DNA of 64,000 bases from Mucilaginibacter sp. MD40 (GCF_002288635.1 NZ_NRSW01000001.1:3739852-3803851); one strand, 5' to 3'; numbered from the stretch's first letter, positions 20,861 through 61,000 are shown. Translations and numbers: made by a program. The notes: a model not told the origin generated them from the sequence alone.

Positions 20861-21754
20861 TCAGGCAGCTTTAGGGATTTCGGTTTTGGAGCGTTTTGGT
20901 TTCAACGCTTTCACTTTGCTGTCGTCATTCGGGGTAACTTTAATCGGTTGCGCCCTGAAGTCTTTGAGGTTCAGGAAAAACCCCCTGTTGAACAACATGC
21001 CCTCGCTGAATATTTGCCATAAAAGGGATGCCCCTAAGTTGGCAAGTGCGGAATTGATGAACAAATCCTGTTGCGTGAGGGCTTCGGCTAAGGAACAGCT
21101 TGGCGTGTGGTCGCCCTTTTCGGAGTTCACTAACAGTTCCCTGAATTCCTCGGTCACTAAAGGCAAACGGCTGACCACCTCAAACTTTCGGGATGCGGGT
21201 TGCGTTATTTCGCCAATGGTGGATAGGATACACTGCCCTATATCCCTGCTGTTGCCAAAGTCCATCCAGTAAAGCGGATGGTGATAGGCGTGTTTCCTGC
21301 TTGCATAGATTTTGGATAGCAGGTCGGCAATCTCAAATCTTGCCTTTACGGTATCCACGCAAGTTATGGTGATTTCCGCCATCGCCAGTTCGGGACTCTC
21401 GTTCAGGGTTTGCAGGTCGTATTTTTCGGGTATGGCTTTCCAGTTCGTGCCGAAAAAGAGATTGATGCGGTTGACAAGCGCAACGGCTTTGTGCAAGCCA
21501 AGTTCAGCGGTTGAAAATAGCTGTCTGCCTAAATTGGCTTCTTCCACTTTATCATCATCGAACACCCGCACGGCAAGGCCGGGATGGTTCAGGGCGATGA
21601 GCGCATGGTTTATTCGTCCCAATGCCGTCAGGAACTGGCTGCCTGTACCGCCCGCACCGATCAGGTTGACCACGATGGGGTTGTAGGGGTTCAGCAGGGT
21701 TTTTTCCACGATATGTACGGCGGTCTTTACCGCTTTCAGTTTTGGCGTTTTCAT
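20861..21754 (-). CDS. PRTRC system ThiF family protein (E1-like)
   Basis: E1-like adenylating enzyme of 297 residues. It keeps the nucleotide-binding loop GAGGTGS (33-39), the acidic strand end VFDDDKVEEANLGRQ (64-78, with the Asp, Asn and Arg used for ATP and magnesium) and a TCVD strand (131-134). PSCS places Cys220 as a candidate thioester cysteine in the crossover region. ThiF/E1 enzymes adenylate the C-terminal Gly of ubiquitin-like proteins; here the obvious substrate is PRTRC protein C (23637), which ends GTKG. The gene overlaps protein B by 4 bp. The basic Pro-rich tail (KALKPKRSKTEIPKAA) is unusual. Confidence 0.9.
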   Translation of the reverse strand: MKTPKLKAVKTAVHIVEKTLLNPYNPIVVNLIGAGGTGSQFLTALGRINHALIALNHPGLAVRVFDDDKVEEANLGRQLFSTAELGLHKAVALVNRINLFFGTNWKAIPEKYDLQTLNESPELAMAEITITCVDTVKARFEIADLLSKIYASRKHAYHHPLYWMDFGNSRDIGQCILSTIGEITQPASRKFEVVSRLPLVTEEFRELLVNSEKGDHTPSCSLAEALTQQDLFINSALANLGASLLWQIFSEGMLFNRGFFLNLKDFRAQPIKVTPNDDSKVKALKPKRSKTEIPKAA

Positions 21755-22479
21755 ATAAAGAGGGTTTTAAGGGTTCGCTGATTGGGTTTGAGGCTTTCGC
21801 AGGGAAATACACGGTCTGTGGCGACCTGCTTTTGCCATAGCTGCACTATGTTCTCGGTTACGGGGTTGAACTCGCCCATCAGGTGACTGAAATAGCTGTT
21901 CCAAAAGTAGTTCTCCCATTGTGCCATAAAATCTTCCAGTCGGATGGTCTTGCCGATATTGATGCGCACGTTACCCATACAAACCTTACCATCTGTAGCC
22001 ACATTGAAAAAGGGGGCATGAAAAAGGGCGGTATTGCCTACGGGCTTGCGGTGTCCCTTCAGGGCGTACACCGCTAAACTGTCCCTGCCCGCTTTCCACA
22101 CCATCGCAGGTACTTTTCCCCTGCCTGATTTGATGCCTAAAGCATTGGAAAAGTAAAGGGGGACTTCCTGCGGTGGGGTGAACCAAATGGCATAGCCCTC
22201 CTGCTCGGTATTCACGTACAGCACCTTATTGGGCATGACGCCTTTACAGCGCAGGAAGCCCGTTTTAAATTCCTGCGCCGACTGGAAAATGCTGCTCAGG
22301 GCAAGCATTTCCTTAACGGTCAGCGGGTGGGCGTTTATTGGGTTGCCCAACCTGCCGATGTCGTAACTCTCTACATACACGCTGCTTGTATCTTCTTCGG
22401 TATGCTTGGTGTATATCAGCAGGGATTTTACAGGCTGATACAGGTTGCTGAAATTATGCGTTAGGTTCTTCATCGTCAA
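21751..22479 (-). CDS. PRTRC system protein B (E2-like)
   Basis: This 242-residue protein matches the PRTRC B family, which I understand to be related to prokaryotic E2-like (UBC-fold) proteins. The key stretch is FHAPFFNV (153-160) followed by GKVCMGNV, with Cys167 in the position of the E2 active site (G-x-V/I-C-L in classical E2s). GYAIWFTPP near residue 95 would be a central strand. It lies between F-like and ThiF with overlapping ends (26 and 4 bp). The start could also be Met3 at 22473. It is predicted to accept protein C from ThiF. Confidence 0.82.
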   Translation of the reverse strand: MTMKNLTHNFSNLYQPVKSLLIYTKHTEEDTSSVYVESYDIGRLGNPINAHPLTVKEMLALSSIFQSAQEFKTGFLRCKGVMPNKVLYVNTEQEGYAIWFTPPQEVPLYFSNALGIKSGRGKVPAMVWKAGRDSLAVYALKGHRKPVGNTALFHAPFFNVATDGKVCMGNVRINIGKTIRLEDFMAQWENYFWNSYFSHLMGEFNPVTENIVQLWQKQVATDRVFPCESLKPNQRTLKTLFI

Positions 22480-23572
22480 AATCGTTTAATATGCCTGTCA
22501 GTTCATCCAACAGGAAAAATAGTCTTGTTTCAAAATCAAAATCGTGGCGGGGTTTTTCCTGTGGCGTGTCAAACCATTGGACGGCAACGGGTTCTTCCTG
22601 ATAGCCCATTTCCTGAAATTCGCTGTTCACCATTTCAAACAGCATGTGCTGCAAGGTGTCCTCACCGCTCCAGTAAAAGGAGATGTAGTTCTCCCAATAG
22701 ATGCTGTAATCATCCTCGCTGGCTTCGTGCAACTCGTAGTGCATGGTGTCTTTGATAGCACGTTCGGGATAGTCCTTAGCCAGTTTCAGCAGTTCGCTTG
22801 CGACTTCCCTTAACTCCCTGCCTTGCTTGTCCGTTACGGGGATTTGCTGTAATTGCTGTTCCCACGTCTCCAAATCATAGGGCATTTTGATTTCGGGTAA
22901 CAGCGTATCACCTGCCAGTCGCATTAAGTCCAGTTCTGCGAACTGGCGTTTGCGGTATTGGCATTCTTCCTTGTCATCATGCTCGTCATATTCGTCATCA
23001 ATCTCTCTTATCCAGTTTTCGAGTGCATCATAGGAATTATCCAAATAGCCCGGCTCACGAAAAAAGGGGATGCCGATTGTGTGGTATAAGTATGCAAACA
23101 GCGTTCGGGTAAGTTCATAATAGGGCTGTTTGTTCCTTTCGTTTTTCATCTGCCACAACGGACGGACAGGCACATAATACAGGCAGAAGTTAGTATCAAA
23201 GGTTTTGACGGTTGCCAGTCGGGCGGGGCAACCCTTATCCTGCAACAGCATCACAGATGCGCCGTCAAACCGCTGTGAGGCCAGCTTTTCCAGTATTGCC
23301 GAAATGTTTTGAGGGAATGGCAAACCCGAGGTATCGGGGGCTTGCCACCCGTACAACTGGCAAAGGTTTCCCAACGACTGAAAAAATTCGCGTTCACCCT
23401 GCCCGAAGCCCGAAAAAGGCAGGCTTTGGAACGGCTTGAATGAATGGGTCAGAAAACCATTACGGTGCGTTCCTTTGGTGCGCTTCTTAGCGGGTTTTGC
23501 TGTACTTCCCTTGCATCGGGCAAGCGGTCTAACTTTTGGACGAATTCCCCGAATAATTGATGTAGTTTCCAT
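22454..23572 (-). CDS. PRTRC-associated protein, F-like by position and length
   Basis: This 372-residue protein has an acidic, aromatic C-terminal half (EASEDDYSIYWENYISFYWSGEDTL) and a basic, low-complexity N-terminus. Length and order fit PRTRC system protein F, but I see no decisive motif, so the label is tentative. The first 40 residues overlap another small frame (23449-23625) and may not be translated as given. The true start could lie near THRNGFLTHSF. It overlaps protein B by 26 bp, so the cassette is translationally coupled. Confidence 0.6.
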   Translation of the reverse strand: METTSIIRGIRPKVRPLARCKGSTAKPAKKRTKGTHRNGFLTHSFKPFQSLPFSGFGQGEREFFQSLGNLCQLYGWQAPDTSGLPFPQNISAILEKLASQRFDGASVMLLQDKGCPARLATVKTFDTNFCLYYVPVRPLWQMKNERNKQPYYELTRTLFAYLYHTIGIPFFREPGYLDNSYDALENWIREIDDEYDEHDDKEECQYRKRQFAELDLMRLAGDTLLPEIKMPYDLETWEQQLQQIPVTDKQGRELREVASELLKLAKDYPERAIKDTMHYELHEASEDDYSIYWENYISFYWSGEDTLQHMLFEMVNSEFQEMGYQEEPVAVQWFDTPQEKPRHDFDFETRLFFLLDELTGILNDFDDEEPNA

Positions 23573-23625
23573 TGTGTACTTTCCTCTATGACGGTTACTT
23601 TCCTGTTAATTCTTTTAGTTTCCAT
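23449..23625 (-). CDS. Possible 58-residue ORF overlapping the F-like gene
   Basis: ATG 23625 opens a frame of 58 codons (begins METKRINRKVTVIEES, ends KERTVMVF) only 11 bp after protein C. Its composition is more protein-like than the overlapping N-terminus of the 22454 frame (TKWKLHQLF-type helix, balanced charges). It fills the only sizeable gap in an otherwise tightly packed operon. Either this small protein is real and the F-like gene starts later, or both overlap. Confidence 0.4.
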   Translation of the reverse strand: METKRINRKVTVIEESTQWKLHQLFGEFVQKLDRLPDAREVQQNPLRSAPKERTVMVF

Positions 23626-23636
23626 GATGTTGCGGT

Positions 23637-23855
23637 TTAACCTTTCGTACCCATTGTGCTTTCAAAACGGTACTGTATCATATCGTCCTTGATCTCAGGC
23701 CCGACAATTCGGGCATTGGTCAGGATGGGATAAGTACCTGTATAAAAGTTCAGGACACTATCGGGGTTCATGGCTTCGTTAGGGTCGGTCAAACGGACTT
23801 CCAACCCGTTCTCCTTATGGATAAAAATCCGTTCTAATTGCGTTGTCTGTAACAT
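23637..23855 (-). CDS. PRTRC system protein C (ubiquitin-like)
   Basis: The 72-residue protein ends ...ESTMGTKG, the typical PRTRC C terminus, and includes LERIFIH, NFYTGTYPILTNA and YRFESTMG. The family is described as a prokaryotic ubiquitin-like protein; size, beta-rich N-terminus and an exposed C-terminal Gly fit that. Because the chain already ends in Gly, no processing protease would be needed before E1 activation. It lies 11 bp after protein E. Confidence 0.88.
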   Translation of the reverse strand: MLQTTQLERIFIHKENGLEVRLTDPNEAMNPDSVLNFYTGTYPILTNARIVGPEIKDDMIQYRFESTMGTKG

Positions 23856-23866
23856 GATGCTTTCCT

Positions 23867-24448
23867 TTAGGCTTCGTTAAATAATGTCAGGGCTTGGGCG
23901 TACTGTGTCTTTTTGCGCTCCAAATCGGCACGCCTTTTTTCCAGTTCTTCTTTCTTTTCGGGGTAGTCCTCTACCGATGGCAGGATGTTGAGCGCATCTT
24001 CGTATTTGCACAGGTCGTTGAGTTCCACTACTTTTCGGATGGTATCGGTATAGGTTTTCCGCTTTTCCTCTGCGGACATTTTGGGTTCACCCACTTCAAT
24101 CTCGTCTGTATCATCGTTGGTTTTAGCTTTGGCGGGTTGGGGCTTGCTTCCCTGTCCTAATTTTTTCTTGGCAACATCCACGCTTGCGGTTACGGCTTTG
24201 ATATTGCTGTACAGCCCTTTAAGGCTATCCACCTGCGTTACGGTGGCTTCAAAAAAGCCCTCGTCCATATCCAATGCCGTACCCCTGTGAATAAGGGGTA
24301 CTATCATTTTTGTGGCGGGTTCGTTAGATTTAAAGGGGGCGTATAAGGCAGATACGGTAAAATTGCCGTTCTCATCATTTTGGATGCCAATCGTCCAAAT
24401 GCCGGGGGCATTCAGGCTGGCTATATTTTCAAAGAAGTTCGTTTTCAT
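23867..24448 (-). CDS. PRTRC system protein E
   Basis: The 193-residue protein begins MKTNFFENIASLNAPGIWTI and has FTVSALYAP, VPLIHRGTALDMDEGFF, all diagnostic for PRTRC E. The second half is Lys/Glu-rich coiled helix (SAEEKRKTYTDTIRKVVELN, KKEELEKRRADLERKK) and follows a low-complexity linker. The role of protein E is unknown. It is the first recognisable PRTRC gene in the operon order E-C-(58 aa)-F-B-ThiF. Confidence 0.88.
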   Translation of the reverse strand: MKTNFFENIASLNAPGIWTIGIQNDENGNFTVSALYAPFKSNEPATKMIVPLIHRGTALDMDEGFFEATVTQVDSLKGLYSNIKAVTASVDVAKKKLGQGSKPQPAKAKTNDDTDEIEVGEPKMSAEEKRKTYTDTIRKVVELNDLCKYEDALNILPSVEDYPEKKEELEKRRADLERKKTQYAQALTLFNEA

Positions 24449-27017: not shown

Positions 27018-27824
27018 TTAGTAGCGCCTGCGCCTTTTATATGTTACAGGCCTGGAGAAATTCGCCATGGTCTGCCTTTGCTGCATTCTTCGCAGCATGG
27101 TTATCTGGTTTTGCAGGTCCCGCATAAATTGGTCTTTATTATTTAAGAAGCTGCGAAGCCGCAATGAGGACCTGCCGTTAAGGGCATCGGCTATAAAAGA
27201 TTTGACAGGTATCTTTTCCAAAAGCGCGGATGTTCCAATTCTAATCGGAAACAAGCAAAATACATGCTCTTTTAATTCAGTTGACCCGTAAAAGGTTTGG
27301 TCGCTTTTAAAGTCGAAGATCACGGGAACAGGACTTCCGAGCCATGCAGCCGGTAAACTGTGTTCAGGGTTGCTCACCAAAAAGCTGCCGGCATTGATTT
27401 GAAAAAAGTGGTCTTTGGAGTCAATAAATCGCTGATGTTCACGTTTCAGGCGTGTTCCATCGGCGACCCAAACCATGTTTCCGTAAAAGTTCTCGCGGGA
27501 AACGCGCTCTAAAGGGTCAATACGGGAGTGCTGAAATTCGATTACCATTCCATGGGCGGTACGCACGTCAGCAATATGTTTTTCTCCTGTTAATTCATCA
27601 TTCAAAATAATTTCCTGCCATTCAACAGGGAAATTACCTTTCCAGGATCGGTGCCATTCGGTTTCCGGCTCCCACCAGGGATCGCACATTTTATTGCGGT
27701 GCGCCCAGTGGTGCATTCTTTGTGTACCACATTTGGCAATAAGAGGCAATCCGCATCCGGGACAAAACCCTGATAAACCGGGTTCCGCCTCAATTCGATT
27801 ATTATCAAACATTGCAAATCGCAT
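27018..27824 (-). CDS. CoiA-like protein with a predicted PD-(D/E)XK nuclease fold
   Basis: This 268-residue protein begins with a zinc ribbon-like CPGCG (21-25) and HHWAH (38-42), as in competence protein CoiA relatives. A nuclease-like core follows: HIADV with Asp86 and VIEFQ with Glu96-x-Gln98, the D...E-x-Q variant of the PD-(D/E)XK site. The C-terminus is basic (RRMQQRQ, YKRRRRY), good for DNA contact. It is third gene of a three-gene minus-strand operon, 18 bp after the SMEK gene, in which all three members show nuclease-type motifs. Nuclease activity is predicted, not shown. Confidence 0.8.
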   Translation of the reverse strand: MRFAMFDNNRIEAEPGLSGFCPGCGLPLIAKCGTQRMHHWAHRNKMCDPWWEPETEWHRSWKGNFPVEWQEIILNDELTGEKHIADVRTAHGMVIEFQHSRIDPLERVSRENFYGNMVWVADGTRLKREHQRFIDSKDHFFQINAGSFLVSNPEHSLPAAWLGSPVPVIFDFKSDQTFYGSTELKEHVFCLFPIRIGTSALLEKIPVKSFIADALNGRSSLRLRSFLNNKDQFMRDLQNQITMLRRMQQRQTMANFSRPVTYKRRRRY

Positions 27825-27842
27825 ATCTCTGTACCAAGGTGG

Positions 27843-29120
27843 TTAATCTTCAATATCTTTCAGGGAAGGTGCGAAAATAGCCTTCAACCCCTCGCTTGAC
27901 CTGTTCTGTTCCGTTTCGTTAAGTTCGAGGTACGGCGTAAAGAAATAGCCGGGCTGTCCTTCGGAAACAAATCCGTGAATTATTTGGGTATAAATATCAT
28001 TTAAAGTAGCGTTGCTAATATCATGGATCATTTTTGAAAATGATAAAGGCGAAGGGTCAAGAAACGTAGTCGTCATCATATTATTGACATGCAACGGGGA
28101 GTTTTGGCTGAAGAAACATAATTTGCCGTTACTTGCCAAATCAAAATCCAGCTCAACCTGCATGGGTTGTTTACCATAAAGTTGTTTCAGCATGATCAAA
28201 AGGCTTGTAATAGCCAGCACCTCAGTAACCAGGCTGGAGATCATTGTTTTTTCTGCCTGGTAACTTGCCTTTTCAAATATGATGGAGTTTGCCTGAATGC
28301 GAAGCGCACCCTCTTTAAAATAATCAGGCGTATTAGGATTCTCCAGCTTATCATAAAAATCTATCTGTTGAGCGGTTTGGCTACGCCGATAATAAGGATT
28401 GAAAAGATATAGGTTGTTCTTTTTAACGCCGTCGTAAAATTTATCCAATGCCTGAAAAAGTACGGGAGCCGAAAAGGATCTTCCTAATAAACGGACCCTG
28501 ATTACCGTATGCTGAAAATACGGCATTGTGGAAATTTGCAGGCTGGCTTCAGTATTGATCAGCGTGGTAGACTTAACAGCCGCAGCAGCTTCCACGCCTT
28601 TGAGCTTGCTGATGGTATAGGGCAGCTCGGCTTCTAAAAGCTCAATGATCTGTTGCAGCCTCGCCAACGGAAGATGCTGCATATCTTTGAGCCAGTCGTC
28701 AAAGTCGACAACATTCTTAGTCGTGTCAAAAGCAAAAAGCCCGTTGATGTTGGTATTAAGCGTATAGCTACCTTGTTTTGGCGACAACATAAATATGTTG
28801 ATGGAAGGGAATTTGACGTAGTGTTTGAACCGGATAACCTTTTCAAGCATTTCATCGACCTTTGAACTCGTTTTTTCGGAACTAACCTGATAGGCTATAC
28901 CATGGCTTTCGTCACCAATATCAATGCCGGGGAAATTGGAGATCGGTTCATTCAGGTTAATCAATTGATAGTCGTAGGTCAGGTTAAGCAGGTTTTTGAC
29001 CAGGTTTTCACAATATTTATGAATATTCAATATCCCCAATATCCCTGCCTGTTTGATCTCATTTTTTAAAATGGCGATCTTTTCATTGACCTGTTCGATT
29101 ATTTTTCCGCTGGTTATCAT
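27843..29120 (-). CDS. SMEK-domain protein
   Basis: This 425-residue protein has an N-terminal SMEK domain, a predicted restriction-endonuclease-like fold: HKYCENLVKNLLNL (34-47), NFPGIDIGD (62-70) with Asp67/Asp70, and AYQVSSEKTSSK (76-87). The C-terminal 250 residues are not recognised and may be a sensor or partner-binding region; there is no STAND NTPase. SMEK domains often sit in bacterial conflict systems. It is flanked within 18 bp on each side by the other two nuclease-type genes. Confidence 0.8.
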   Translation of the reverse strand: MITSGKIIEQVNEKIAILKNEIKQAGILGILNIHKYCENLVKNLLNLTYDYQLINLNEPISNFPGIDIGDESHGIAYQVSSEKTSSKVDEMLEKVIRFKHYVKFPSINIFMLSPKQGSYTLNTNINGLFAFDTTKNVVDFDDWLKDMQHLPLARLQQIIELLEAELPYTISKLKGVEAAAAVKSTTLINTEASLQISTMPYFQHTVIRVRLLGRSFSAPVLFQALDKFYDGVKKNNLYLFNPYYRRSQTAQQIDFYDKLENPNTPDYFKEGALRIQANSIIFEKASYQAEKTMISSLVTEVLAITSLLIMLKQLYGKQPMQVELDFDLASNGKLCFFSQNSPLHVNNMMTTTFLDPSPLSFSKMIHDISNATLNDIYTQIIHGFVSEGQPGYFFTPYLELNETEQNRSSEGLKAIFAPSLKDIED

Positions 29121-29138
29121 TATGTAAAAGTAAGAATA

Positions 29139-30905
29139 TTAAGCCTTTCCGGGTTTCAAAAGGTCTTCGCCGAATTCCATAAAGAGTTTAGGTGTGCGCA
29201 ATTTACTGAAGTCATGAAGGAAGCCATTGTATGGTTGGAAGGAATTAAGCATCAATTTTTCGAGGTAGTCTTCGGTAGGGCGGACACCATGTTTAGGTTT
29301 TATCTTATTACGGTTTATCGCGGCATAATAGGCAAGCAGGCTCTCCTCAAACTGGCCACGATTGGCCTCGAACTCTTCGCTGTACAAAATCAGGGTATCA
29401 AAGTCCAGGATCACCAATGGAAATATCCTGGCTTTATTAACCCGTAATGTTTCACGGCTTTCGATTTCTTCCTGAAACCAGTCATTTAAAACCACATTCA
29501 CGCCGGGTGTGGTCAACGCCAGTTCGGAAACCAGTAAAATGGGGAAGATACGGAGCTTTGCAGGCTGACGCTGGCGGTCGTAACCGTCGGCACTACTAAA
29601 AAGGTATTCAATCCGTTCAGCCAACTGTTTAACGGCTTTATTGTCGTTTTCTTCATCATCATGGACATATTTCTTGCGGAGTTCCTTGGCGACAAAAGGG
29701 TAATTAAAGGATTGTTTGGCCTCTCCGGTGAGTATACTTCCTTTAACTTCAAACAGGAATACCTTATGCCCGTTCCTTACATAATAATCAGGTTCCGTGT
29801 CAAGACCGAAGCGCTGAACGATATCGGCTCCTGAAAGCCGGTAATAGCTTGTCCTGCCGAAAATCTTGTTCAGCAAAGTATAACTGAGGTGTTTTTCAAT
29901 AAAATCAAAAGTGTAGAAAGAGAAAAATTCCCGGTAGGCCGGGTGTAAATTCTTATTGCGTTCTGCAAGGCGGAGCAGTTCAAAAAAGGCGGAGTTATAA
30001 ATACGGTTAACGGCGAGGACCGGATCCAGGATGAGATAGGTATCTTCGCCGGTACGGAAGAGTGGCATCGACCTCGCATTAAGGAAATCTGTCTTTGCTT
30101 TGTAGTCAATGTCATCGACAAGCGCAAGATGATCCAAAAAGGCCTTGCTTCGCTCCCTGTTATCCGAGTCTTTTATATCAAGGTAGTTCAGTCCCGAGCC
30201 GTCGCCTTCGGTGGTGGCATGTATCGCAACCGGCAGGATGCCCTTAAGGTAATCCCGCCAGTTTTCGACCCCGTAACTATTTAGAAAAAGACGCAGTAAT
30301 TCCCCGTGTCCGTGTTCGAGAAACGAGAACAGGTAGTAAGCTTTTATGGTTCCGGCAATTAGCAGCTCTGAAGCATTGAAATGGTTCAGGTCATGATATG
30401 GTAAGAGGTTGGTTAAATATACTCTTGCTAATTTGTCAACCACATCGGGGAATTGATCAGCCGGCACAGAGGCGAAAATACCATCGTTTTTTGCACCGAA
30501 AAGTCCGTTTGCCGCGAGGTAGATATCAAAAAGCTCTTTTTCGGACGCTAAATCGTCGAGGCGGTTTTCAGGGTCGGCCGGGGTGCTTAATATTTTGTCG
30601 AGTAAATAAAGATTGGACCAGAGGTTGATGGTAAGCAATTGACGCGGATGGACATTCGCGTCCCGGTAGCTGTTGATGATCCGGTTTAGTAACAAATTCG
30701 CGTGTTCCTGGTTGGCTTCGCTAAACCAGGTTTTTAAGACATCGATTACGCCGTCGTGTTTGTTGTGGCGTGCCAGATGATTCAGCCGGGCAAGAAGCTT
30801 CGCCCAGGTGCTCCTGTCCAACGCAGATAGACTTACATCGGTTATCTCCTTATCTTCACCGTAAAGGCGCTGATAGTTAATTACAAGTTTTCGATTGAAG
30901 TTCAT
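29139..30905 (-). CDS. Large protein with a predicted PD-(D/E)XK site
   Basis: The 588-residue protein is largely helical for its first 350 residues. It then shows EPDYY (371-375) followed by FLFEVKGS (383-390), so Asp373, Glu386 and Lys388 form a classic PD-(D/E)XK pattern. It is otherwise unrecognised. It is first gene of the nuclease operon. The large N-terminal region could sense or bind a partner. Helicase and methyltransferase motifs were not seen, so this is not a standard restriction subunit. The spread of acidic patches (HDDEENDNK) is notable. Confidence 0.75.
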   Translation of the reverse strand: MNFNRKLVINYQRLYGEDKEITDVSLSALDRSTWAKLLARLNHLARHNKHDGVIDVLKTWFSEANQEHANLLLNRIINSYRDANVHPRQLLTINLWSNLYLLDKILSTPADPENRLDDLASEKELFDIYLAANGLFGAKNDGIFASVPADQFPDVVDKLARVYLTNLLPYHDLNHFNASELLIAGTIKAYYLFSFLEHGHGELLRLFLNSYGVENWRDYLKGILPVAIHATTEGDGSGLNYLDIKDSDNRERSKAFLDHLALVDDIDYKAKTDFLNARSMPLFRTGEDTYLILDPVLAVNRIYNSAFFELLRLAERNKNLHPAYREFFSFYTFDFIEKHLSYTLLNKIFGRTSYYRLSGADIVQRFGLDTEPDYYVRNGHKVFLFEVKGSILTGEAKQSFNYPFVAKELRKKYVHDDEENDNKAVKQLAERIEYLFSSADGYDRQRQPAKLRIFPILLVSELALTTPGVNVVLNDWFQEEIESRETLRVNKARIFPLVILDFDTLILYSEEFEANRGQFEESLLAYYAAINRNKIKPKHGVRPTEDYLEKLMLNSFQPYNGFLHDFSKLRTPKLFMEFGEDLLKPGKA

Positions 30906-31036
30906 GCGATTGGCTTGGCTTAACCGCTAATTTACTGGTTGGGTAAAAGGAAAACGAATTTGTTGATGGAAATAGGCAAATAAATTTTTTGCCGGTTTGA
31001 AATTTAAAATAATCCCGGCAAAAGCCGGGGTAAAAT

Positions 31037-31044
31037 TATATTTG
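31037..31044 (+). promoter_or_regulatory. -7 box close to the RRM gene start
   Basis: TATATTTG matches TAnnTTTG and ends only 4 nt before ATG 31049. A perfect CCCGGC-AAAA-GCCGGG hairpin (31014-31029) lies just upstream. If this box is used, the message would be leaderless. Confidence 0.45.
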
Positions 31045-31048
31045 TGAA

Positions 31049-32252: not shown

Positions 32253-32291
32253 AATAATAGATTTTTAATAGCGGTAAAACAGAAACTTAAG

Positions 32292-33161: not shown

Positions 33162-33185
33162 AGGTAATGGTTTTGTATTGATTAA

Positions 33186-33907: not shown

Positions 33908-34624
33908 TTAACGCCCATTTTTACGGCCCGCATGTTGACTTAAACGTTGCTTATTTTCTTCGATAAATCCTTCAAGACCGATACCGGTGATAGGTTTTAA
34001 GCTGGCGGAATGTTTTAACCGTACCGGGTTATGGGCCAGTAGCCCCGCTTCGCCCAGTTCGCATTCACGGGCTAAAGCCACCGGGTCAAGGCCATACTCA
34101 TTAGGGATCTCGGCTATAAGGACATTTTCAGGCATTTCGGTGACCGTTTCATTAAAATCGAAAACGTTATGTTCCGCTGTGTCGTAAAAGAATACGTAAT
34201 TCAGGCCATCGTCCGACATATCCAGGTCGTTAAAGCTGATATGTTTCCAGGGCTCGGCGGTTTCGCGCATTTCACGGAGCCGCCAGTCCACGGTAAAATC
34301 GGTTCCGGCGATATCGATGTGGGGAAGTTCTCCTGATAGCCGGCGCGCCGTTGCTTCATCGCCGAAATAGATACCCCAGTTTTCATCATGGCTACGTAGG
34401 TTGATACTGGTGCGCGAAAGCGCGGAAATGCCTTCGGGATTTAATATGAGTTCAACGGGGATTTTAAAATTATTGCCGTTGATCTCCGCCCAAAAAAAAT
34501 CTTTAGATAAAGAATAGCCTAATGCCTCGTACGAAATGGTATTATCCGGGCGGTTATATTGCTTGAGTTCCTGCTGGTCCGCGTCAATAATGAACGGGCG
34601 GTTATCCATAACTAAAATATGCAT
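33908..34624 (-). CDS. Mosaic paralogue 4 (C-terminal domain only)
   Basis: The 238-residue protein lacks the MAN-type N-terminal domain but keeps the C-terminal one (LPHIDIAGTDFTVDWRLREMR, EIPNEYGLDPVALARECEL). Its own N-terminus (MHILVMDNRPFIIDADQQEL) is unrelated. It lies 11 bp before paralogue 3 and 1 bp after the PH-domain gene, inside one operon. Confidence 0.62.
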   Translation of the reverse strand: MHILVMDNRPFIIDADQQELKQYNRPDNTISYEALGYSLSKDFFWAEINGNNFKIPVELILNPEGISALSRTSINLRSHDENWGIYFGDEATARRLSGELPHIDIAGTDFTVDWRLREMRETAEPWKHISFNDLDMSDDGLNYVFFYDTAEHNVFDFNETVTEMPENVLIAEIPNEYGLDPVALARECELGEAGLLAHNPVRLKHSASLKPITGIGLEGFIEENKQRLSQHAGRKNGR

Positions 34625-34625
34625 A

Positions 34626-35075
34626 TCAGTTTAATTCTACGATCTTGCTGTTCTGGCGGGCACGCTGAACGCGTTCACGAATAATATCCGGCAGGTCGGA
34701 CTTAGGAATGCCCCGTAAAATGGTGACCGGTCCGGTAAGATCGGTAGTCAGCAACGTAAGGCTCATTAATCCAAAAAGTTGCATCAGTAAATTGCGGGTA
34801 ACAATGTAATCCTTGACCCTGTATAACTCAAGGCTGTCCGTCCTGCGCAGAAATATGCCGGTTGAAATGTGCAGTACCTCGGCATCAAAGCTATAAACCG
34901 TCTGCCGGATTTTCCAGTAACGGTATAAACCAATGGCGCTGCAAAATGCACTGATCAAAATAAAAGCAGGTAAAAACCGGCAGGCCATACCGAAAAAGAG
35001 CAGCGCAAGCAGGATTATCGGGATAACCATCAGTAATGCATAGATCGCGGATGGCCTAATGGTGATCGTATTCAT
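34626..35075 (-). CDS. PH-domain membrane protein (bPH2-like)
   Basis: The 149-residue protein has two N-terminal membrane helices (about 12-50) and then a bacterial PH-like domain (QTVYSFDAEVLHISTGIFLRR, LYRVKDYIVTRNLLMQLFG) of the YdbS/YdbT type. It overlaps a related gene upstream by 4 bp; two such proteins may form one complex. The role is unknown, perhaps envelope or membrane organisation during transfer. Confidence 0.72.
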   Translation of the reverse strand: MNTITIRPSAIYALLMVIPIILLALLFFGMACRFLPAFILISAFCSAIGLYRYWKIRQTVYSFDAEVLHISTGIFLRRTDSLELYRVKDYIVTRNLLMQLFGLMSLTLLTTDLTGPVTILRGIPKSDLPDIIRERVQRARQNSKIVELN

Positions 35076-35539
35076 ACGCTTTCAGGCTGGAAATAATTTC
35101 GCCACATTTCCTTATTTGCGGCAATACCTTCCTTTAACTGCTGAAGGACCTGCAGCATGGTATGATTATCTACGCCGATAATACGGATACGATCAGCCGG
35201 GGGCCCTTCAAGGCCGCAGTGGATGTGTGAAACGTGCAGCCAACGTAACGGCCCGTTATAGCGAATGTCGGTACCCTTCAGTTGCCAGATCGCGCGGCTT
35301 TCCACTGTTTTAAAAATTACGCCCTTGCTGACAACCAGCATGTCCTGGGTAAAATAATATTGCACAGCAGTAAGCGTAATCAGCCGCCATATCAAGATGG
35401 CGGAAAGCGCAAGGTAAACCATGTACCATAGTATATTCATTCCCCAGGCCATATAAGCGCTTACGATAGTGAGGATGGTATATGGTGCCAGTTGCAGGAA
35501 AATGTATTTGACCGAATGTTGAAAAGAGATGAGTGTCAT
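35072..35539 (-). CDS. PH-domain-like membrane protein
   Basis: The 155-residue protein has a hydrophobic N-terminal third (two helices around 15-55) and a beta-rich part (YYFTQDMLVVSKGVIFK, SRAIWQLKGTDI) that parallels the bPH2 layout of its neighbour. Both ends overlap other genes by 4 bp. It appears to be a distant duplicate of 34626. Confidence 0.62.
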   Translation of the reverse strand: MTLISFQHSVKYIFLQLAPYTILTIVSAYMAWGMNILWYMVYLALSAILIWRLITLTAVQYYFTQDMLVVSKGVIFKTVESRAIWQLKGTDIRYNGPLRWLHVSHIHCGLEGPPADRIRIIGVDNHTMLQVLQQLKEGIAANKEMWRNYFQPESV

Positions 35540-36111
35540 AAGTTTTGATATTTTATTTGTTCAAAAAAGGTGTTATAGCTCCGTGGCTTAACGGTCCGGA
35601 TTCCGGAGCGGATGCCCAATGTTTTTTCAAATGCGTTCAAGGTCAGCTGCCCTTCGGAAAAGCGGTGCCCGTCAATATGGAATTCTTCGTCACCAGTGTA
35701 CCGGATAGCGATTTTTTTAGTGCGAAGTGCAGCGGATACCTTGACGTCTGTAAGCCGTCCCAGGATGTCCTTACCAAATAATAAGGTGGTTTTACCCGTG
35801 ATCGAGGGTATATTTTCCCAATGGTTGCCAACTGCTATGAATTGCAGGAGGTCGAGATCCGGAAAGGAATGGGCCGAAAAACTTAAAAAAGAGATGGCTT
35901 CCATTGCTGAAAAACTGATAAAAACCAACGGGCCACAGCCGGCAGTCCAGGGATTGACAGCCGTTGGTAAGCGGTGTAAGTTTGGGGCGACATGCTCAAA
36001 TTCGTCACCGAAAGGAAAAGCGATACTTCCATCGGCCAGTACCCGGTAGTAGGGTTCAAAAAAAAGCCGGACGTTCCGGGGAACGCCCAGCTTATTTAAC
36101 AGCATAGCCAT
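35536..36111 (-). CDS. Hypothetical protein
   Basis: This 191-residue soluble protein is not recognised. The middle (PLVFISFSAMEAISFLSFSAH) is hydrophobic and helix-strand like, reminiscent of a Rossmann-type core; TGKTTLLFGKDILG looks like, but does not match, a P-loop. It overlaps 35539 by 4 bp and abuts 36112. Confidence 0.55.
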   Translation of the reverse strand: MAMLLNKLGVPRNVRLFFEPYYRVLADGSIAFPFGDEFEHVAPNLHRLPTAVNPWTAGCGPLVFISFSAMEAISFLSFSAHSFPDLDLLQFIAVGNHWENIPSITGKTTLLFGKDILGRLTDVKVSAALRTKKIAIRYTGDEEFHIDGHRFSEGQLTLNAFEKTLGIRSGIRTVKPRSYNTFFEQIKYQNL

Positions 36112-36903
36112 TTAGCGCGAACGGCGGCTATTTGTCCGTGTTTTATCGTCGCCGCTCAGGTCAAGCACAGGCGCAGGTTCTTTTTCCTGCTGCTGTTTCA
36201 TTTTTTGAAGCGTATCCTTATAATCCTGGCTTAATTCCGATGAAGCTGCATCATGTTTTTGACCGATGAAGGCCTTAATTCCGTGGAATAACAGGTAGGA
36301 AATGCCACCGTCAAAGACAATTGAAGCGATCAAAGCGAGGCGGTTGGCCCGAATTCCGTTGCGGTTCGTTGCGGTATACTGCACTTTAGTACCGTCAGCG
36401 ACTTCGACTTCTTTACCACGCTTAAATTTGGCTTTCTGTTCAGGCGTAAGGGGCTGACCATTGATCTCGTCGGGCGCCTCCAATTTTTCCTCGTCAGTTT
36501 CCAGAAACTGATTGGTTTCCCGGTCAAACTCCACCAGTACACGTTTTTTCTGCCCTTTACTGTCAACGATGTCCTTTTCAAGACTTATTTCATCGCCGGT
36601 TTCCAATGCCCAGGATTCTTCCTCGGAAAGATATTCAGGCGCTGTGCTGCGCAGATAGGTCGGGTGTATCATCAGTTCGGGTTTGCCGGCAACACCGCTG
36701 ACCAGCGAAATTTTGGCATTCAATGAAGCGATCCTGATCTCCGCATACTCCAAATTTTTTAAGGGTAGCATTTGAGTGCGGCGTCCGGAAAGCAGCGCTT
36801 TAAGGTCCGCTTCTTCCAGCATCACCCTTCCGTCAGATACAAGGCCGATTGCCGCCAGGTCATCCAGCGGCAGTTCGGCTTCGTTAAAAATTTCGGTATT
36901 CAC
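36112..36903 (-). CDS. DUF4099/DUF3945-type ICE protein
   Basis: The 263-residue protein has the N-terminal pattern (LPLDDLAAIGL, ALLSGRRTQMLPL) and middle block (LTPEQKAKFKRGKEVEVADG) typical of the DUF4099 and DUF3945 domains found on Bacteroidetes conjugative elements, then a hydrophobic helix (ASIVFDGGISYLLFHGI) and a charged tail. A diverged paralogue lies at 42013. The domains' function is unknown. It overlaps the ArdC-like gene by 4 bp. Confidence 0.72.
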   Translation of the reverse strand: MNTEIFNEAELPLDDLAAIGLVSDGRVMLEEADLKALLSGRRTQMLPLKNLEYAEIRIASLNAKISLVSGVAGKPELMIHPTYLRSTAPEYLSEEESWALETGDEISLEKDIVDSKGQKKRVLVEFDRETNQFLETDEEKLEAPDEINGQPLTPEQKAKFKRGKEVEVADGTKVQYTATNRNGIRANRLALIASIVFDGGISYLLFHGIKAFIGQKHDAASSELSQDYKDTLQKMKQQQEKEPAPVLDLSGDDKTRTNSRRSR

Positions 36904-38225
36904 CGTTTCCTCCCGCTTTTTTGTTTCTCACCGGCTTCCTCATTCAGGTCCAGCTCTGGAATTTCTTCATATTCCTCACTGAAATCGAGGATGTTGCCCT
37001 CTTCTTCATCCAGACCATTGCTGTCCTGCTGCCGGAAGCTGATCACATTGTCAGCTTCATGTTCCAGTTCGTTCTCATGCTCATACTGGATACTGTTATC
37101 CTGCTCCTCATTCAAACCTTCGGACTGTTCAGGCGCTGCTGTTCTGTTTTGTTCCCGTTGCGTTTTCAGCCCCTCAATTTTGGCATTCAGCAAGGAAGCA
37201 TAGATACCGTCACCTGGGCTGGCCTTAAAGCGGTTTCCGGTGGATTTGTCCATCACCTGCAGGTCCTTCCCCCGCAGTTTGCCCATCACCTCATATTGTT
37301 TCTCATTATAGTCGATCACATCGCCTACAATAAGGATCCGGTCCTGCCTGGCCGCCTGGCGTTGTTCAGGTGAGTTGATCAGGCCATGAAGATAATCCGT
37401 AATGTATTGGGCGTTGTTGGCGGCCTTCTCCAACTCGTCCGGCATGTCCACGGCGGCCTGATAAACATCTTCCAGGTTGATCTGGGGTGCCAGTTGGGAA
37501 TAGACGCCAATTTCATTTCCGATAAAGAGTGCTGCAAGGGCTGGTTTGGCTTGTTCCGCTGCGGAAATATCCATTGGGTCAAACAGTTCTTTATCCTGGC
37601 CTGCAAATTTCACGACCTCGTATAATAAGGCAGCCTGGTATTCCTGTGGCGTTCCGAAGCTGTCCGGCTCCGGCATATAAATGATGCGGTCCGCCGCATC
37701 ATAGCCCGGCTCGCCAATGGTTGACTCTACCTTGGCATTGCTTAGCTCTACCAGCTTGCCCAGTTGTTCCATCGGGTCAGGCCTTGATGATGCCCTGCGT
37801 TCTTCATATTCCTTTAATGGAGGAATACCTTCGATCTGCGTGGCATTAAATACATAGGCGTCCGTTTCAACCGGGTTCGCCAGTTTGATCAGTTCCGTTT
37901 TGGGGTTACGGCGGCTGTTGAGCTGCGGTTTGCCCTGCTCATCCAGAAGTTGCACACGGTCGGTCGTTTTCAGGAAGCTTATAAGCGTTCCTTTGGAACC
38001 GGTCTGTACTTTCCAGCCGTTCTTGTTCGATGCCTGTTTAAGTGTCATCCAGCGCGGGTCGCGCGGTCCCTGCATGGCAAGCCATAAGGCATTCATGCCG
38101 CGATAGGCCTTGCCGGTTGTCGGGTTCACCGGCATGGCAAAGCCGGGAAGATCAAATGGGCTCTGCCTGTCGTTCATTTTTTCGACCAGGCGTGCCGCAA
38201 TCTGTTGATTTGATTGTTGACTCAT
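36900..38225 (-). CDS. ArdC-like protein with a degenerate zincin site
   Basis: This 441-residue protein starts at MSQQSNQQIAARLV (ATG 38225); the frame extends to 38282 but would overlap the methyltransferase much further. NPTTGKAYRGMN (34-45), RWMTLKQAS and WKVQTGSKGT are the ssDNA-binding N-domain of ArdC, an anti-restriction protein that protects entering DNA. In the following metallopeptidase-like domain the expected HExxH reads YEVVK (202-206), so zinc hydrolase activity is probably lost. The C-terminal 90 residues are acidic and Glu/Asn-rich. It overlaps both neighbours by 4 bp. Confidence 0.82.
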   Translation of the reverse strand: MSQQSNQQIAARLVEKMNDRQSPFDLPGFAMPVNPTTGKAYRGMNALWLAMQGPRDPRWMTLKQASNKNGWKVQTGSKGTLISFLKTTDRVQLLDEQGKPQLNSRRNPKTELIKLANPVETDAYVFNATQIEGIPPLKEYEERRASSRPDPMEQLGKLVELSNAKVESTIGEPGYDAADRIIYMPEPDSFGTPQEYQAALLYEVVKFAGQDKELFDPMDISAAEQAKPALAALFIGNEIGVYSQLAPQINLEDVYQAAVDMPDELEKAANNAQYITDYLHGLINSPEQRQAARQDRILIVGDVIDYNEKQYEVMGKLRGKDLQVMDKSTGNRFKASPGDGIYASLLNAKIEGLKTQREQNRTAAPEQSEGLNEEQDNSIQYEHENELEHEADNVISFRQQDSNGLDEEEGNILDFSEEYEEIPELDLNEEAGEKQKSGRKR

Positions 38226-39055
38226 AAAATTTGTGTTAATTGTTTGTAAATGGATTGTTCCTGCGCAAATCTTGCGCGGCAATAACTGATCAGGTCTAAA
38301 GGCTGATCTTTCAGGTAATAGATATGCTGATTTTGTTCAATGGCGATAAATTGCCTGCCTTCCCGTATGGCAGCTACCGGGAATGTTCCGCTGCCGCAGG
38401 CATTATCCAATACAATGGCACCGGGTTTTGAGTACGTTCGGATCAGGTATTGGCCGAGCGCAACGGGCTTCTGCGAAGGATGAACTGTTTTGCCTTCACA
38501 TTCCGCTGTTTTGAAATAAACCCAGTCTGTATCGGTATCCTCAAAAAATAAAACATCGGTGGGATGCCGCAGCCCGTCGCTTTTGGAGTGTGTCGGCTTA
38601 TAATGACCATAACAACCTGTCAGATTGGGTTTGCGGAAACCCCGGTCATAAGGTTGGCCTGCTACCATTTGTGGATAGTAGTCCGGTTGCTTTTTATAAA
38701 AAATGCAAATATCCTCATGCTTTTTGAGCGGCTGCCGGTTAGCTTGCAAAAAATTGGGGGTCTTGGATTTAATCCATACCAGTTTGTAGCGGTACCATTC
38801 GGGATTGCTCAGGATCAGCCTGGCTGTAAAAAGGCCGTGTGCCGTCAGGATGACAACCCCGTTTATTTTACTGATACGTTTATACTGTTCCCATAAACGC
38901 GAAAAATCTATGACGGTATCCCAGGGATTTTGCGTGGTGCCATAAGGCAGGTCGCTCAATACTAAATCGATACAGGCATCCGGCATTTGTGCCATAATTT
39001 CCAGGCAGTCCCCTTCGGTTACCTTTCCCAAAAAGTCGTTAAGGCTTTTCATCAT
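38222..39055 (-). CDS. DNA methyltransferase (beta-class N6-A/N4-C type)
   Basis: The 277-residue enzyme has motif IV DLPYG (35-39) before motif I DNACGSGTF (217-225), the order of beta-class amino-methyltransferases. VHPSQKPVAL is another family mark. It transfers a methyl group from SAM to adenine N6 or cytosine N4. No restriction endonuclease is adjacent, so it acts as an orphan, probably protecting the element's DNA in new hosts. The specificity cannot be read from sequence. It overlaps ArdC by 4 bp. Confidence 0.88.
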   Translation of the reverse strand: MMKSLNDFLGKVTEGDCLEIMAQMPDACIDLVLSDLPYGTTQNPWDTVIDFSRLWEQYKRISKINGVVILTAHGLFTARLILSNPEWYRYKLVWIKSKTPNFLQANRQPLKKHEDICIFYKKQPDYYPQMVAGQPYDRGFRKPNLTGCYGHYKPTHSKSDGLRHPTDVLFFEDTDTDWVYFKTAECEGKTVHPSQKPVALGQYLIRTYSKPGAIVLDNACGSGTFPVAAIREGRQFIAIEQNQHIYYLKDQPLDLISYCRARFAQEQSIYKQLTQIL

Positions 39056-39497
39056 CGGTAAGCCGGTAGAGGGTATGGTAAAGAAACTTTAACGGATTAA
39101 GCCATTGGTTTTCATACGTAAGGGCGAAATGCAAATGCTCGCCGGTTACGGCGCCCGTCGAACCGGTAACGGCGATCGGCTCCCCGGCTGCCACCGTGTC
39201 GCCCGGTATAACGAGCCATTGGGATAAATGACCGTAAATACTGCGCAGGGAATTGCCATGATCTATGGTCACGGACAGACCGAGCTTAGGGTTATACCGG
39301 CAGCTTTGTACAACGCCGTCCAGAATGGAAAAGACAGTGTCACGGTGAGCAGCAAGATCGATGCCTGTATGCAGCTTTAACCTGTGGTAAATGGGATGCA
39401 GCCGGTAACCAAAGCCGGAAGTCAGGCGTATTTGTCGTAAAGGAAGGCTGCACATGAGCATAATTCCCCAGAGTCTAACGGCCATAACTTTTTGCAT
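39039..39497 (-). CDS. M23 family peptidase
   Basis: The 152-residue protein has the LytM fold motifs SGFGYRLHP (27-35), HTGIDL (43-48, zinc ligands His43 and Asp47) and HLHF (121-124). It is predicted to cut peptidoglycan cross-bridges during assembly of the transfer apparatus. The short hydrophobic N-terminus may be a signal peptide. It overlaps both neighbours (17 and 23 bp). Confidence 0.85.
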   Translation of the reverse strand: MQKVMAVRLWGIMLMCSLPLRQIRLTSGFGYRLHPIYHRLKLHTGIDLAAHRDTVFSILDGVVQSCRYNPKLGLSVTIDHGNSLRSIYGHLSQWLVIPGDTVAAGEPIAVTGSTGAVTGEHLHFALTYENQWLNPLKFLYHTLYRLTDDEKP

Positions 39498-39918
39498 TCG
39501 TTTGTTCCTGTTCCACAGCGTTTCCGATATCCAGGCCCAATTTGCTTTGTAAGGTTTCCATTGCCTTATTTAGAATACCGGGGTTTTCAACAGCAAGTTG
39601 CATGGCTTCCCTGGCACCTTTGCTGGTCCCGTTTTCGAGGAGGTTGCCTATACGGTACAGGGCCTTTAGGTCAGGAATCGCAATATCTTTCGTATTGGTC
39701 ATCATCTCCTTGTAGATATCGTTAGGCTTTTTAAAAACCAATAAGGCATCACTGCCATAAAGTGCGCGCTCATTCTTGCCAAAGGTGACATAGATATCAT
39801 CCTTTTCGGGTTCCGCAAATATGATCATGGCCATTTGACCCTGTTTGTTAACCGGGTCTTCAGGCAGTTCAGGATGGACCAGTACGAGGGTACCGGTCAG
39901 GTCATCAGTTTGATTCAT
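39475..39918 (-). CDS. Hypothetical protein between coupling protein and M23 peptidase
   Basis: The 147-residue soluble protein has a beta-rich N-terminal half (TGTLVLVHPEL, QMAMIIFAEPEKDDIYVTFG) and a helical C-terminal half. The gene overlaps mobC by 4 bp and the peptidase by 23 bp. It may regulate or support the coupling protein, but no evidence shows this directly. No family is recognised. Confidence 0.6.
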   Translation of the reverse strand: MNQTDDLTGTLVLVHPELPEDPVNKQGQMAMIIFAEPEKDDIYVTFGKNERALYGSDALLVFKKPNDIYKEMMTNTKDIAIPDLKALYRIGNLLENGTSKGAREAMQLAVENPGILNKAMETLQSKLGLDIGNAVEQEQTNAKSYGR

Positions 39919-41933: not shown

Positions 41934-42012
41934 AAGTGATTTGTTTATCGGCTGGAGGGATGGCAGCCGTTCTTTCCTAAATCATTGATCTTAAAGCAGA
42001 CAAGACAGCGTG

Positions 42013-42801
42013 CTAACGCTTATATGGTTTCTGAGTCCTTGCTTTTCCTGAAATGTTGAGTGTTTCACGAAATAGGGGTTGCACCTCGGCATTCATCGCA
42101 TCAAATTCCTTTTTAAATGCTTGGCTTTCCTCAGCGATTTGCGCTGTTCCCAATGGCCTGATACCGTCAATCAGTTCATAGTGCTTTCCGTCTTCCGTGT
42201 CTTTCGATAGTATAAGTGAGTACCGGTTCGCCAATAATCCATTGCTATCCGTGGCTTTATAAACCAGGTTTGTTCCATCCGGTAAGGTTAAGGGGATTGC
42301 GCGGCTGAAATCGGCCTTTTGTGCCGGACTTAATTCAAAACCGTTAATACGGTCCGGTATTAACACTTCTTCAGGCGAATAAGAAATAAATTCACGGGTT
42401 TCCTCATCGTATTCATAGATATACTCATATTTCTTAGACACATCGGGTGGAGCTACGGCGGTTGCCATCATAAAGCGGGCATGCAATTGTTGGCCATCGA
42501 TGAGTGCCTGTATAGTGTCATCTCCACGAGCAAACGGGAGCCTGGGTTTGTGATAAACGGGATGAACACGAATAAATGCCTGTCCATCGCGATCCCGGTG
42601 CAATGATAATTTAGCATCCATTTGTGCGATATTCATGCCATTGGATGAGAGATCGTGCAAACGCATCAGGGAAGTTCGGCGGCCTGACAGCAGTACATAC
42701 AAGTCCTCGGGTTCTATCTTTAGATCACCGTATTGATCATACAATCCCAGGGACCTCATTTCAGAGTCGCTTAATTCATAAAGCGCGAAAGAGTTACGCA
42801 T
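42013..42801 (-). CDS. DUF4099/DUF3945-type ICE protein, paralogue of 36112
   Basis: This 262-residue protein shares the pattern of the gene at 36112: LSGRRTSLMRLHDL, ELSPAQKADFSRAIPLTLPDG, and YKATDSNGLLANR. The ATG at 42801 is preferred over a TTG at 42810. It is separated from the helicase by about 75 bp and from mobC by about 80 bp. Function unknown. Two copies on one element suggest related but distinct roles. Confidence 0.7.
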   Translation of the reverse strand: MRNSFALYELSDSEMRSLGLYDQYGDLKIEPEDLYVLLSGRRTSLMRLHDLSSNGMNIAQMDAKLSLHRDRDGQAFIRVHPVYHKPRLPFARGDDTIQALIDGQQLHARFMMATAVAPPDVSKKYEYIYEYDEETREFISYSPEEVLIPDRINGFELSPAQKADFSRAIPLTLPDGTNLVYKATDSNGLLANRYSLILSKDTEDGKHYELIDGIRPLGTAQIAEESQAFKKEFDAMNAEVQPLFRETLNISGKARTQKPYKR

Positions 42802-42876
42802 AAAAAACAATTAGAATTGAAAAACCGCTTGAATGCGGCTAAAGCGAACCAAGGAGAACAAACGGCAAGTACAATC

Positions 42877-48408: not shown

Positions 48409-48769
48409 TGCTGCCCCCTTCCTGTAAATAGTCGTCAATGGCGGTGATCACTGCGTATCGCAGCAGGCGGTTGTCGTCCGTTTCCGGCCATCCAAACTCT
48501 TTTAAGGTGATTTCGCAGGCTGCACAGATGTTGAGTAATTCATAACGCATTATCCCTGCCTCATGAAAGCGGAGCCAATGCAAGTGAAAATCCTCTTCCA
48601 AAACATCTTCCAGAAAATCGAGCGGAGATGATGGCAAGGCCGAAAAGCTATCTATACCGTCTAAATCTGCCAGGTATTCCGCTAAAGTATTTTCATCCTG
48701 CAGGCGGATATACAAGGCAGGGTCAAGCCGCACCAGCGCTTCTGCGAGGCGAATTGTAGGTTCTGCCAT
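48398..48769 (-). CDS. Small acidic hypothetical protein
   Basis: This 123-residue acidic helical protein ([26 protein letters not shown]) has no membrane segment. It lies between traN and the giant helicase, whose start it overlaps, and could be an accessory factor for it. Comparable small genes occur at this place on Bacteroidetes ICEs, as I recall. No family is named. Confidence 0.6.
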
Positions 48770-48791
48770 AATTTGTTGTAATTAGGCCCGC

Positions 48792-49613: not shown

Positions 49614-49614
49614 G

Positions 49615-50787: not shown

Positions 50788-50789
50788 AA

Positions 50790-51831: not shown

Positions 51832-51843
51832 GAACTATTGATT

Positions 51844-55095: not shown

Positions 55096-55099
55096 AAAT

Positions 55100-59335: not shown

Positions 59336-59407
59336 GAAAAAAGCATAAAAAGGATTTTTTGAAGCCGGCTTAAAGATGTCGTGCGGCTAACATGGAAAAT
59401 GATGGTT

Positions 59408-60335: not shown

Positions 60336-60339
60336 CGCT

Positions 60340-60984: not shown

Positions 60985-61000
60985 AAAATTAAGTTTTAAG

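What the first reader, a model, noticed from the sequence alone, without database searches (positions are those of the whole stretch)
27018..30905. Three-gene operon of predicted nucleases: 588-residue PD-(D/E)XK protein, SMEK protein, CoiA-like protein
Three consecutive genes, each 18 bp apart on one strand, all show restriction-like motifs (Asp373/Glu386/Lys388; Asp67-70 with QVSSEK; Asp86/Glu96/Gln98). No methyltransferase or helicase belongs to the operon. I know of no described system with this set. It sits on an ICE beside other conflict genes, so a new defence or inter-element competition system is a good hypothesis.
Basis: partly seen in the sequence, partly recalled or inferred. Interest (0 to 1): 0.8.

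Follow-up and report, generated by a model that had tools for sequence, protein, structure and literature searches.

The report
Three separate nuclease genes stacked together
Three neighbouring genes on a mobile DNA element each encode a predicted DNA-cutting enzyme, but elsewhere each one occurs without the other two, so this looks like a pile of independent, probably defensive, cargo genes rather than a new three-part immune system, although the largest one is an undescribed family found across Bacteroidota.

Summary
In detail: three intact co-directional genes (588, 425, 268 aa) with 18-bp gaps, each carrying a PD-(D/E)XK-type motif. The motif residues are invariant in relatives (A: E337, D373, E386, K388, Q427 in 63 proteins; B: E38, D67, Q78, K87 in 11; C: D86, E96, Q98 in 36). 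A folds confidently as a helical N-terminal half plus a C-terminal restriction-endonuclease core (pLDDT 91). B's nuclease half is homologous to the solved Mrr/SMEK domain of a short-Argonaute partner. C is a CoiA-family protein. The interpretation as one system is not supported. Among 63 other distinct A loci, none has a SMEK gene nearby and only one has a close CoiA homologue, which is convergent; relatives 64, 49 and 38% identical lack both. The B and C relatives examined also lack the partner genes. The trio occupies a variable cargo slot of a Bacteroidota conjugative element; 13 sister elements carry other cargo there. Most likely these are three single-gene nuclease modules. New pieces: family A (no Pfam, NCBIfam or PADLOC model; best structural match Upx) and B's C-terminal domain, also found fused to TIR/SEFIR.

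The parts
29139..30905 (-). Gene A, 588 aa: all-helical N-terminal region (1-320) plus C-terminal PD-(D/E)XK core (327-503; active-site candidates E337, D373, E386, K388, Q427). Undescribed Bacteroidota family.
27843..29120 (-). Gene B, 425 aa: SMEK (Mrr-like) nuclease domain 10-165 plus C-terminal domain about 171-425 of unknown fold that also occurs fused to a TIR/SEFIR domain
27018..27824 (-). Gene C, 268 aa: CoiA-family protein, Cys/His (putative zinc) N-terminal module plus PD-(D/E)xQ nuclease core (about 56-150)
30906..31048 (.). 143-bp divergent intergenic region between gene A and the RRM-protein gene; presumed to hold the promoter of A-B-C (no TAnnTTTG match found on the A strand)
20861..24448 (-). 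PRTRC-like cassette (ThiF, Prok-E2_D, two further genes) that borders the cargo slot in this and 13 sister elements
33908..62113 (-). Conjugation backbone (ArdC, coupling protein, TraM, TraG ATPase, relaxase) on the other side of the cargo slot

Best explanation
Genes A, B and C are three separately acquired single-gene nuclease modules stacked head-to-tail in a variable cargo slot of a Bacteroidota integrative conjugative element and probably co-transcribed. Each most likely works alone, cutting foreign DNA or, once triggered, DNA generally. A: a helical N-terminal region would sense or gate a C-terminal restriction-endonuclease-fold nuclease. B: a SMEK/Mrr nuclease effector would be switched on by its C-terminal domain, which is exchangeable with a TIR/SEFIR effector. 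C: a CoiA-type Cys/His-module nuclease, a common passenger of plasmids and phage contigs. Shown: gene structure, nuclease homology and conserved residues, lack of conserved linkage, slot variability. Inferred: catalysis, sensing, co-transcription and a defensive role.
For: Linkage: none of 63 other distinct A loci has a SMEK homologue nearby; one close CoiA homologue (L061, convergent) and one marginal hit (L097, E 1.4e-4) were found. In 30 of 57 scorable distinct A loci A has no close same-strand neighbour on either side. The nearest A relatives (64% L037 and L038, 49% L039, 38% L040) lack B and C and sit beside DUF4238, DUF5677 or HsdM/HsdS genes. The B relative L141 and CoiA loci L132-L136 and L143-L152 have none of the other genes. 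Slot: 13 sister elements with the PRTRC-like cassette have no A, B or C there; two were checked and hold LigD-like or DnaE-like cargo. L039 carries A next to the same coupling/ArdC flank but with DUF4238 following. Nuclease identity: A; B; C. Effector swap of B's C-terminal domain. Defence links: SMEK-APAZ/short Ago DNA cleavage (PMC10810196, PMC12205087); a CoiA-domain anti-phage system (PMC9519451); A's Foldseek match to Upx, E 2.9e-4.
Against: No activity data. B and C are rarely sampled in Bacteroidota (7 and 11 of 395 genomes), so a recent three-gene combination confined to close strains cannot be excluded; metagenome contigs could not be scanned. The even 18-bp gaps are compatible with joint function. 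Cargo in the slot of sister elements includes DNA-repair genes, so the slot is not specifically defensive. Only 13 of 63 other A loci show conjugation-backbone homologues within about 7 kb, with no background rate measured.
Confidence: 0.65

Rival explanations
1. The three genes form one cooperating multi-nuclease defence system, assembled recently in this lineage.
For: Same strand, equal 18-bp gaps, all three nucleases, located on a conjugative element.
Against: No other locus examined has even two of them as adjacent co-directional genes; the closest A relatives do without B and C.
Confidence: 0.08
2. Only B and C, or A and B, form a real two-gene unit.
For: Adjacency in the window.
Against: The only full-length B relative (L141, 27%) has neither A nor C beside it; other SMEK loci have no CoiA gene, and CoiA loci have no SMEK gene.
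Confidence: 0.08
3. The nucleases serve the element's own DNA metabolism (transfer, exclusion of competing elements, repair or recombination) rather than phage defence; CoiA is named for a role in competence/recombination, and the same slot holds LigD- and DnaE-like genes in sister elements.
For: Cargo in sister elements; CoiA genes on many conjugative plasmids.
Against: A also lies beside Type I R-M genes and a MmeI-type R-M gene; SMEK and Upx are defence-linked names in the literature.
Confidence: 0.19

Closest known systems
Upx (PDB 9wuf, named in the literature as an anti-phage system)
   Same: Best Foldseek match of the A model over 567 alignment columns (E 2.9e-4, probability 1.00); VIA aligns A 11-523 to Upx 738-1272 (Z 6.2, rmsd 9.5, 363 residues).
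   Different: The Upx chain is 1,212 residues, A is 588; no sequence match to any PDB chain; TM-scores are low (0.27/0.16), so relation is a lead only.
GapS1 (NCBIfam NF047931, anti-phage)
   Same: One partial A relative (G347) matches the model at E 3.5e-6, model positions 263-337; another (G130) only at E 0.05.
   Different: Nothing reaches the 320-bit cut-off; the window's A gives no match; most of the model is unmatched.
Shedu SduA (8ps4) and Can2/Card1/FokI/BspD6I nuclease domains
   Same: Same PD-(D/E)XK core fold as A's C-terminal part (VIA Z 5.2 to 9.5).
   Different: N-terminal parts differ; no Pfam hit of any kind in any of 63 members.
SMEK-APAZ proteins of nuclease-type short Argonaute systems (e.g. 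Kordia, PDB 26bh)
   Same: B residues 19-164 are homologous to the solved Mrr/SMEK domain (E 5.8e-13); PADLOC Ago-associated REase profile matches residues 6-169.
   Different: B's C-terminal half is not covered by that profile and shows no similarity to SMEK-APAZ C-termini (hhalign probability 0.4%); no Argonaute gene was identified beside it.
CoiA family (CoiA_N PF25164 / CoiA_nuc PF06054); the CoiA-domain anti-phage system in PMC9519451
   Same: CoiA_N above cut-off; invariant Cys/His residues and D-x9-E-x-Q motif; 52% identity to a stand-alone CoiA gene in another Bacteroidota genome.
   Different: CoiA_nuc scores just under its cut-off (17.7 vs 20.3); I could not compare with the published anti-phage CoiA protein itself.

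Membership tests
PD-(D/E)XK nuclease superfamily (gene A) | alpha-beta-beta-beta-alpha-beta core with D and ExK on adjacent strands | tested here: met
   model pLDDT 91.4, pTM 0.92: E337 in helix 327-349, D373 at strand 374-378, E386/K388 in strand 381-388, Q427 in helix 424-437; VIA Z up to 9.5 with BspD6I; residues invariant in 63
SMEK domain (PF21941) (gene B) | score above curated cut-off; E/D/Q active-site residues kept | tested here: met
   129.2 bits vs cut-off 27; E38, D67, Q78, K87 invariant in 11
Short pAgo / SMEK-APAZ system (gene B) | APAZ domain after the nuclease domain | tested here: not met
   PADLOC profiles stop at residue 169; hhalign with SMEK-APAZ C-termini probability 0.4%. 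B's C-terminal fold itself was not modelled.
Short pAgo / SMEK-APAZ system (gene B) | adjacent Piwi-containing short Argonaute | tested here: not met
   ten genes from 24.5 to 33.9 kb scanned with Pfam, none with Piwi
CoiA family (gene C) | CoiA_N module above cut-off | tested here: met
   30.0 bits vs 26.3; C21, C24, C32, H39, H42, C47 invariant in 36
CoiA family (gene C) | CoiA_nuc domain above cut-off | tested here: inconclusive
   17.7 bits vs cut-off 20.3; core modelled with D86 and E96/Q98 on neighbouring strands; weak VIA matches (Z up to 5.0), the top ones mostly PD-(D/E)XK nucleases
GapS1 (NF047931) (gene A) | curated score of 320 bits | tested here: not met
   no match in G000; best relative 27.1 bits
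Upx (gene A) | recognisable as Upx by sequence | tested here: not met
   no match of the 63-member profile to any PDB chain sequence at E up to 10; chain lengths 588 vs 1,212
Upx (gene A) | same fold over the C-terminal half | tested here: inconclusive
   Foldseek E 2.9e-4 but TM 0.27/0.16; VIA Z 6.2, rmsd 9.5
Restriction-modification system | cognate methyltransferase in the operon | tested here: not met
   none in 27018-30905; nearest MTase gene found 38222-39055 belongs to another gene run
Conserved three-gene system | gene order recurs in independent genomes | tested here: not met
   0 of 63 other distinct A loci; not at the B or C loci examined either

The most novel reading that the evidence does not exclude
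The trio is a young composite immune unit in which three nucleases with different triggers act in sequence or as one complex on the same invading DNA, found so far only in this element.
Probability: 0.07. Interest if true: 0.75.

Novelty: new member of a known kind. Interest (0 to 1): 0.4.

Why it matters
It removes a false candidate (a three-nuclease system) and leaves two concrete leads. First, an unnamed nuclease family (at least 64 distinct proteins, nearly all in Bacteroidota, several on plasmids and conjugative elements or beside restriction genes) with a confident model and an invariant active site; if its match to Upx is real it would tie a widespread orphan family to a named defence protein. 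Second, a C-terminal domain used both with a SMEK nuclease and with a TIR/SEFIR domain, the effector-swapping pattern known from APAZ proteins but here without an Argonaute, which suggests a new sensor or switch domain.

Tried and rejected
Single-sequence scans for A (genome contigs) and B (viral contigs) found nothing; the profile scan for A worked. Profile search of A against PDB sequences: no hit. A in phage records (one relative as query): none. APAZ as B's C-terminal domain: no support. DUF4263/Shedu membership for A: no Pfam hit in 63 members; Shedu appears only as one of many fold matches. An obligate partner of A: the same-strand neighbours fall into different families (DUF4238, a DUF613-like protein with a PD/ELK motif, HsdM, KAP NTPase and others), none recurring in more than a few distinct loci. 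A search of gammaproteobacterial genomes for a reference GapS1 protein was not possible because the centre must be a genome handle. I could not model B: only its own sequence was eligible, and the two jobs went to A and C. Papers on Upx mechanism were not found in the library.

Full report
OBSERVATION. The three ORFs exist exactly as described: A 29139-30905, B 27843-29120, C 27018-27824, all on the minus strand, separated by 18 and 18 bp. A is the first gene; a 143-bp divergent region separates it from an RRM-protein gene on the other strand. A Bacteroidota-like TAnnTTTG element was seen there only for the opposite gene (31037-31044; such matches are no more frequent in the window than chance), so the promoter of A-B-C is not identified and co-transcription is inferred from layout.

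GENE A. No Pfam, NCBIfam, PADLOC or PHROG model matches A, and its 63-member family gives no consistent model either. Relatives occur in 12 of 394 other Bacteroidota genomes sampled, on eight Hymenobacter plasmids and in 80 loci of a species-level genome collection (nearly all titled as Bacteroidota, one a MAG labelled Limnohabitans); one IMG/VR contig carries one. In 63 aligned proteins E337, P372, D373, Y374, Y375, R377, E386, K388, Q427 and P455 are invariant. The AlphaFold2 model is confident (pLDDT 91.4, pTM 0.92): residues 1-320 are almost all helical, and 327-503 form the helix-strand-strand-strand-helix-strand order of the PD-(D/E)XK fold with the invariant residues at the expected places. 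The best Foldseek match in the PDB is the entry titled 'Upx' (9wuf, E 2.9e-4), the only match at E <= 0.001 and the one whose VIA alignment spans both the helical part and the nuclease (A 11-523 to Upx 738-1272), though at low TM-score and high rmsd. Other matches concern the nuclease core and its surroundings: BspD6I, FokI, Can2/Card1, McrC, SduA, LmuA. An NCBIfam model of the anti-phage protein GapS1 touches one partial relative at E 3.5e-6 but is far below its cut-off. So A is a PD-(D/E)XK protein of an undescribed family; a defence role is inferred.

GENE B. Residues 10-147 match the SMEK domain (129 bits), and 19-164 match the solved Mrr domain of a Kordia Mrr-APAZ protein (E 5.8e-13). 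E38, D67, Q78 and K87 are invariant in 11 SMEK proteins. SMEK domains are nuclease effectors of short-Argonaute systems (PMC10810196, PMC12205087). B, however, lacks APAZ similarity after residue 169 and no Piwi gene was found among the genes around the trio. Its C-terminal domain is rare: the only full-length relative found is in the same genus (L141, 27% identity), on another conjugative element and without A or C. The same C-terminal domain follows a TIR/SEFIR domain in L142: a two-sequence profile finds it at E 4.4e-8 among 1,774 proteins, next best 0.27. L142 first surfaced at E 8e-4, so this is good but not overwhelming evidence.

GENE C. C carries the CoiA_N module above cut-off and CoiA_nuc just below it. 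D86, E96 and Q98 and the Cys/His residues are invariant in 36 relatives, and the model (pLDDT 88.8) puts D86 and E96/Q98 on adjacent strands of a small alpha/beta core; structural matches are weak (Z at most 5.0), the top ones mostly PD-(D/E)XK proteins. Relatives are common on plasmids (45 records) and IMG/VR contigs (68 loci). A CoiA domain has been reported in a validated E. coli anti-phage system (PMC9519451); I did not compare the two sequences.

IS IT A SYSTEM? I clustered the A loci at 85% identity into 64 distinct ones, the window included. HMMs for SMEK, CoiA and B's C-terminal domain were run on all ORFs within about 7-9 kb (less where contigs end). SMEK and the B C-terminal domain occur only in the window; CoiA occurs additionally in L061, convergent to A, and marginally in L097. 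The 64%-identical relatives L037 and L038, the 49% one L039 and the 38% one L040 have other neighbours: RES-like and DUF5677, DUF4238, DUF4238 plus AAA, HsdM/HsdS. In 30 of 57 scorable distinct loci A has no same-strand neighbour within 60 bp on either side. Nor do the SMEK and CoiA loci examined have the partner genes.

CONTEXT. The window shows an integrase at 13968-15311, a PRTRC-like cassette at 20861-24448 (name from established knowledge of ThiF/Prok-E2 cassettes), and ArdC, coupling protein, TraM, TraG and relaxase at 33908-62113. Between cassette and conjugation block lies the trio. I fetched 13 elements of relatives sharing the cassette: none has A, B or C within the stretch fetched, and they have unrelated genes next to it; two were identified as LigD-like and DnaE-like. 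L039 has A beside the same coupling/ArdC block with DUF4238 instead of B and C. Thirteen of 63 other A loci contain conjugation-backbone homologues within about 7 kb (no background rate measured).

MECHANISM. The best-supported reading is three independent modules. A: helical sensor/gate plus nuclease in one chain (inferred from architecture). B: nuclease effector controlled by an exchangeable C-terminal domain (inferred from the TIR/SEFIR fusion and by analogy with APAZ proteins). C: CoiA-type nuclease. Whether they restrict phage, plasmids or competing elements, or serve element maintenance, cannot be told from sequence; I put a defensive or competition role somewhat above a maintenance role.

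VERDICT. Observation confirmed; 'new three-gene system' not supported; two modest leads remain, family A and B's C-terminal domain.

Noticed in passing
20861-24448: PRTRC-like cassette: ThiF (E1-like), Prok-E2_D and two further genes; its 372-aa member has relatives in 25 of 80 genomes searched, and the cassette marks one edge of a variable cargo slot.
   Followed up: partly
31389-33896: Three tandem paralogues with the Api92-like C-terminal domain (DUF1281_C), next to an RRM-protein gene.
   Followed up: no
38222-39055: N6/N4 DNA methyltransferase gene inserted between ArdC and a conjugation gene; not present at the same place in the sister element L268.
   Followed up: no
15568-16551: Predicted protein combining a RhuM-type domain and a Fic domain, just inside the integrase end.
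   Followed up: no
L038:9760-11433: A second, divergent A-like ORF (23% identity over 178 residues, profile E 5e-16) close to the 64%-identical A gene; possibly a further branch of the family.
   Followed up: no
L023:9927-10946, L024:10277-11320: In some loci A overlaps a downstream gene with its own PD-x(8)-ELK motif (weak DUF613 similarity), i.e. A beside a different putative nuclease.
   Followed up: partly
31006-31037: A GC-rich inverted repeat (CCCGGCTTTTGCCGGG) in the divergent region upstream of A.
   Followed up: no
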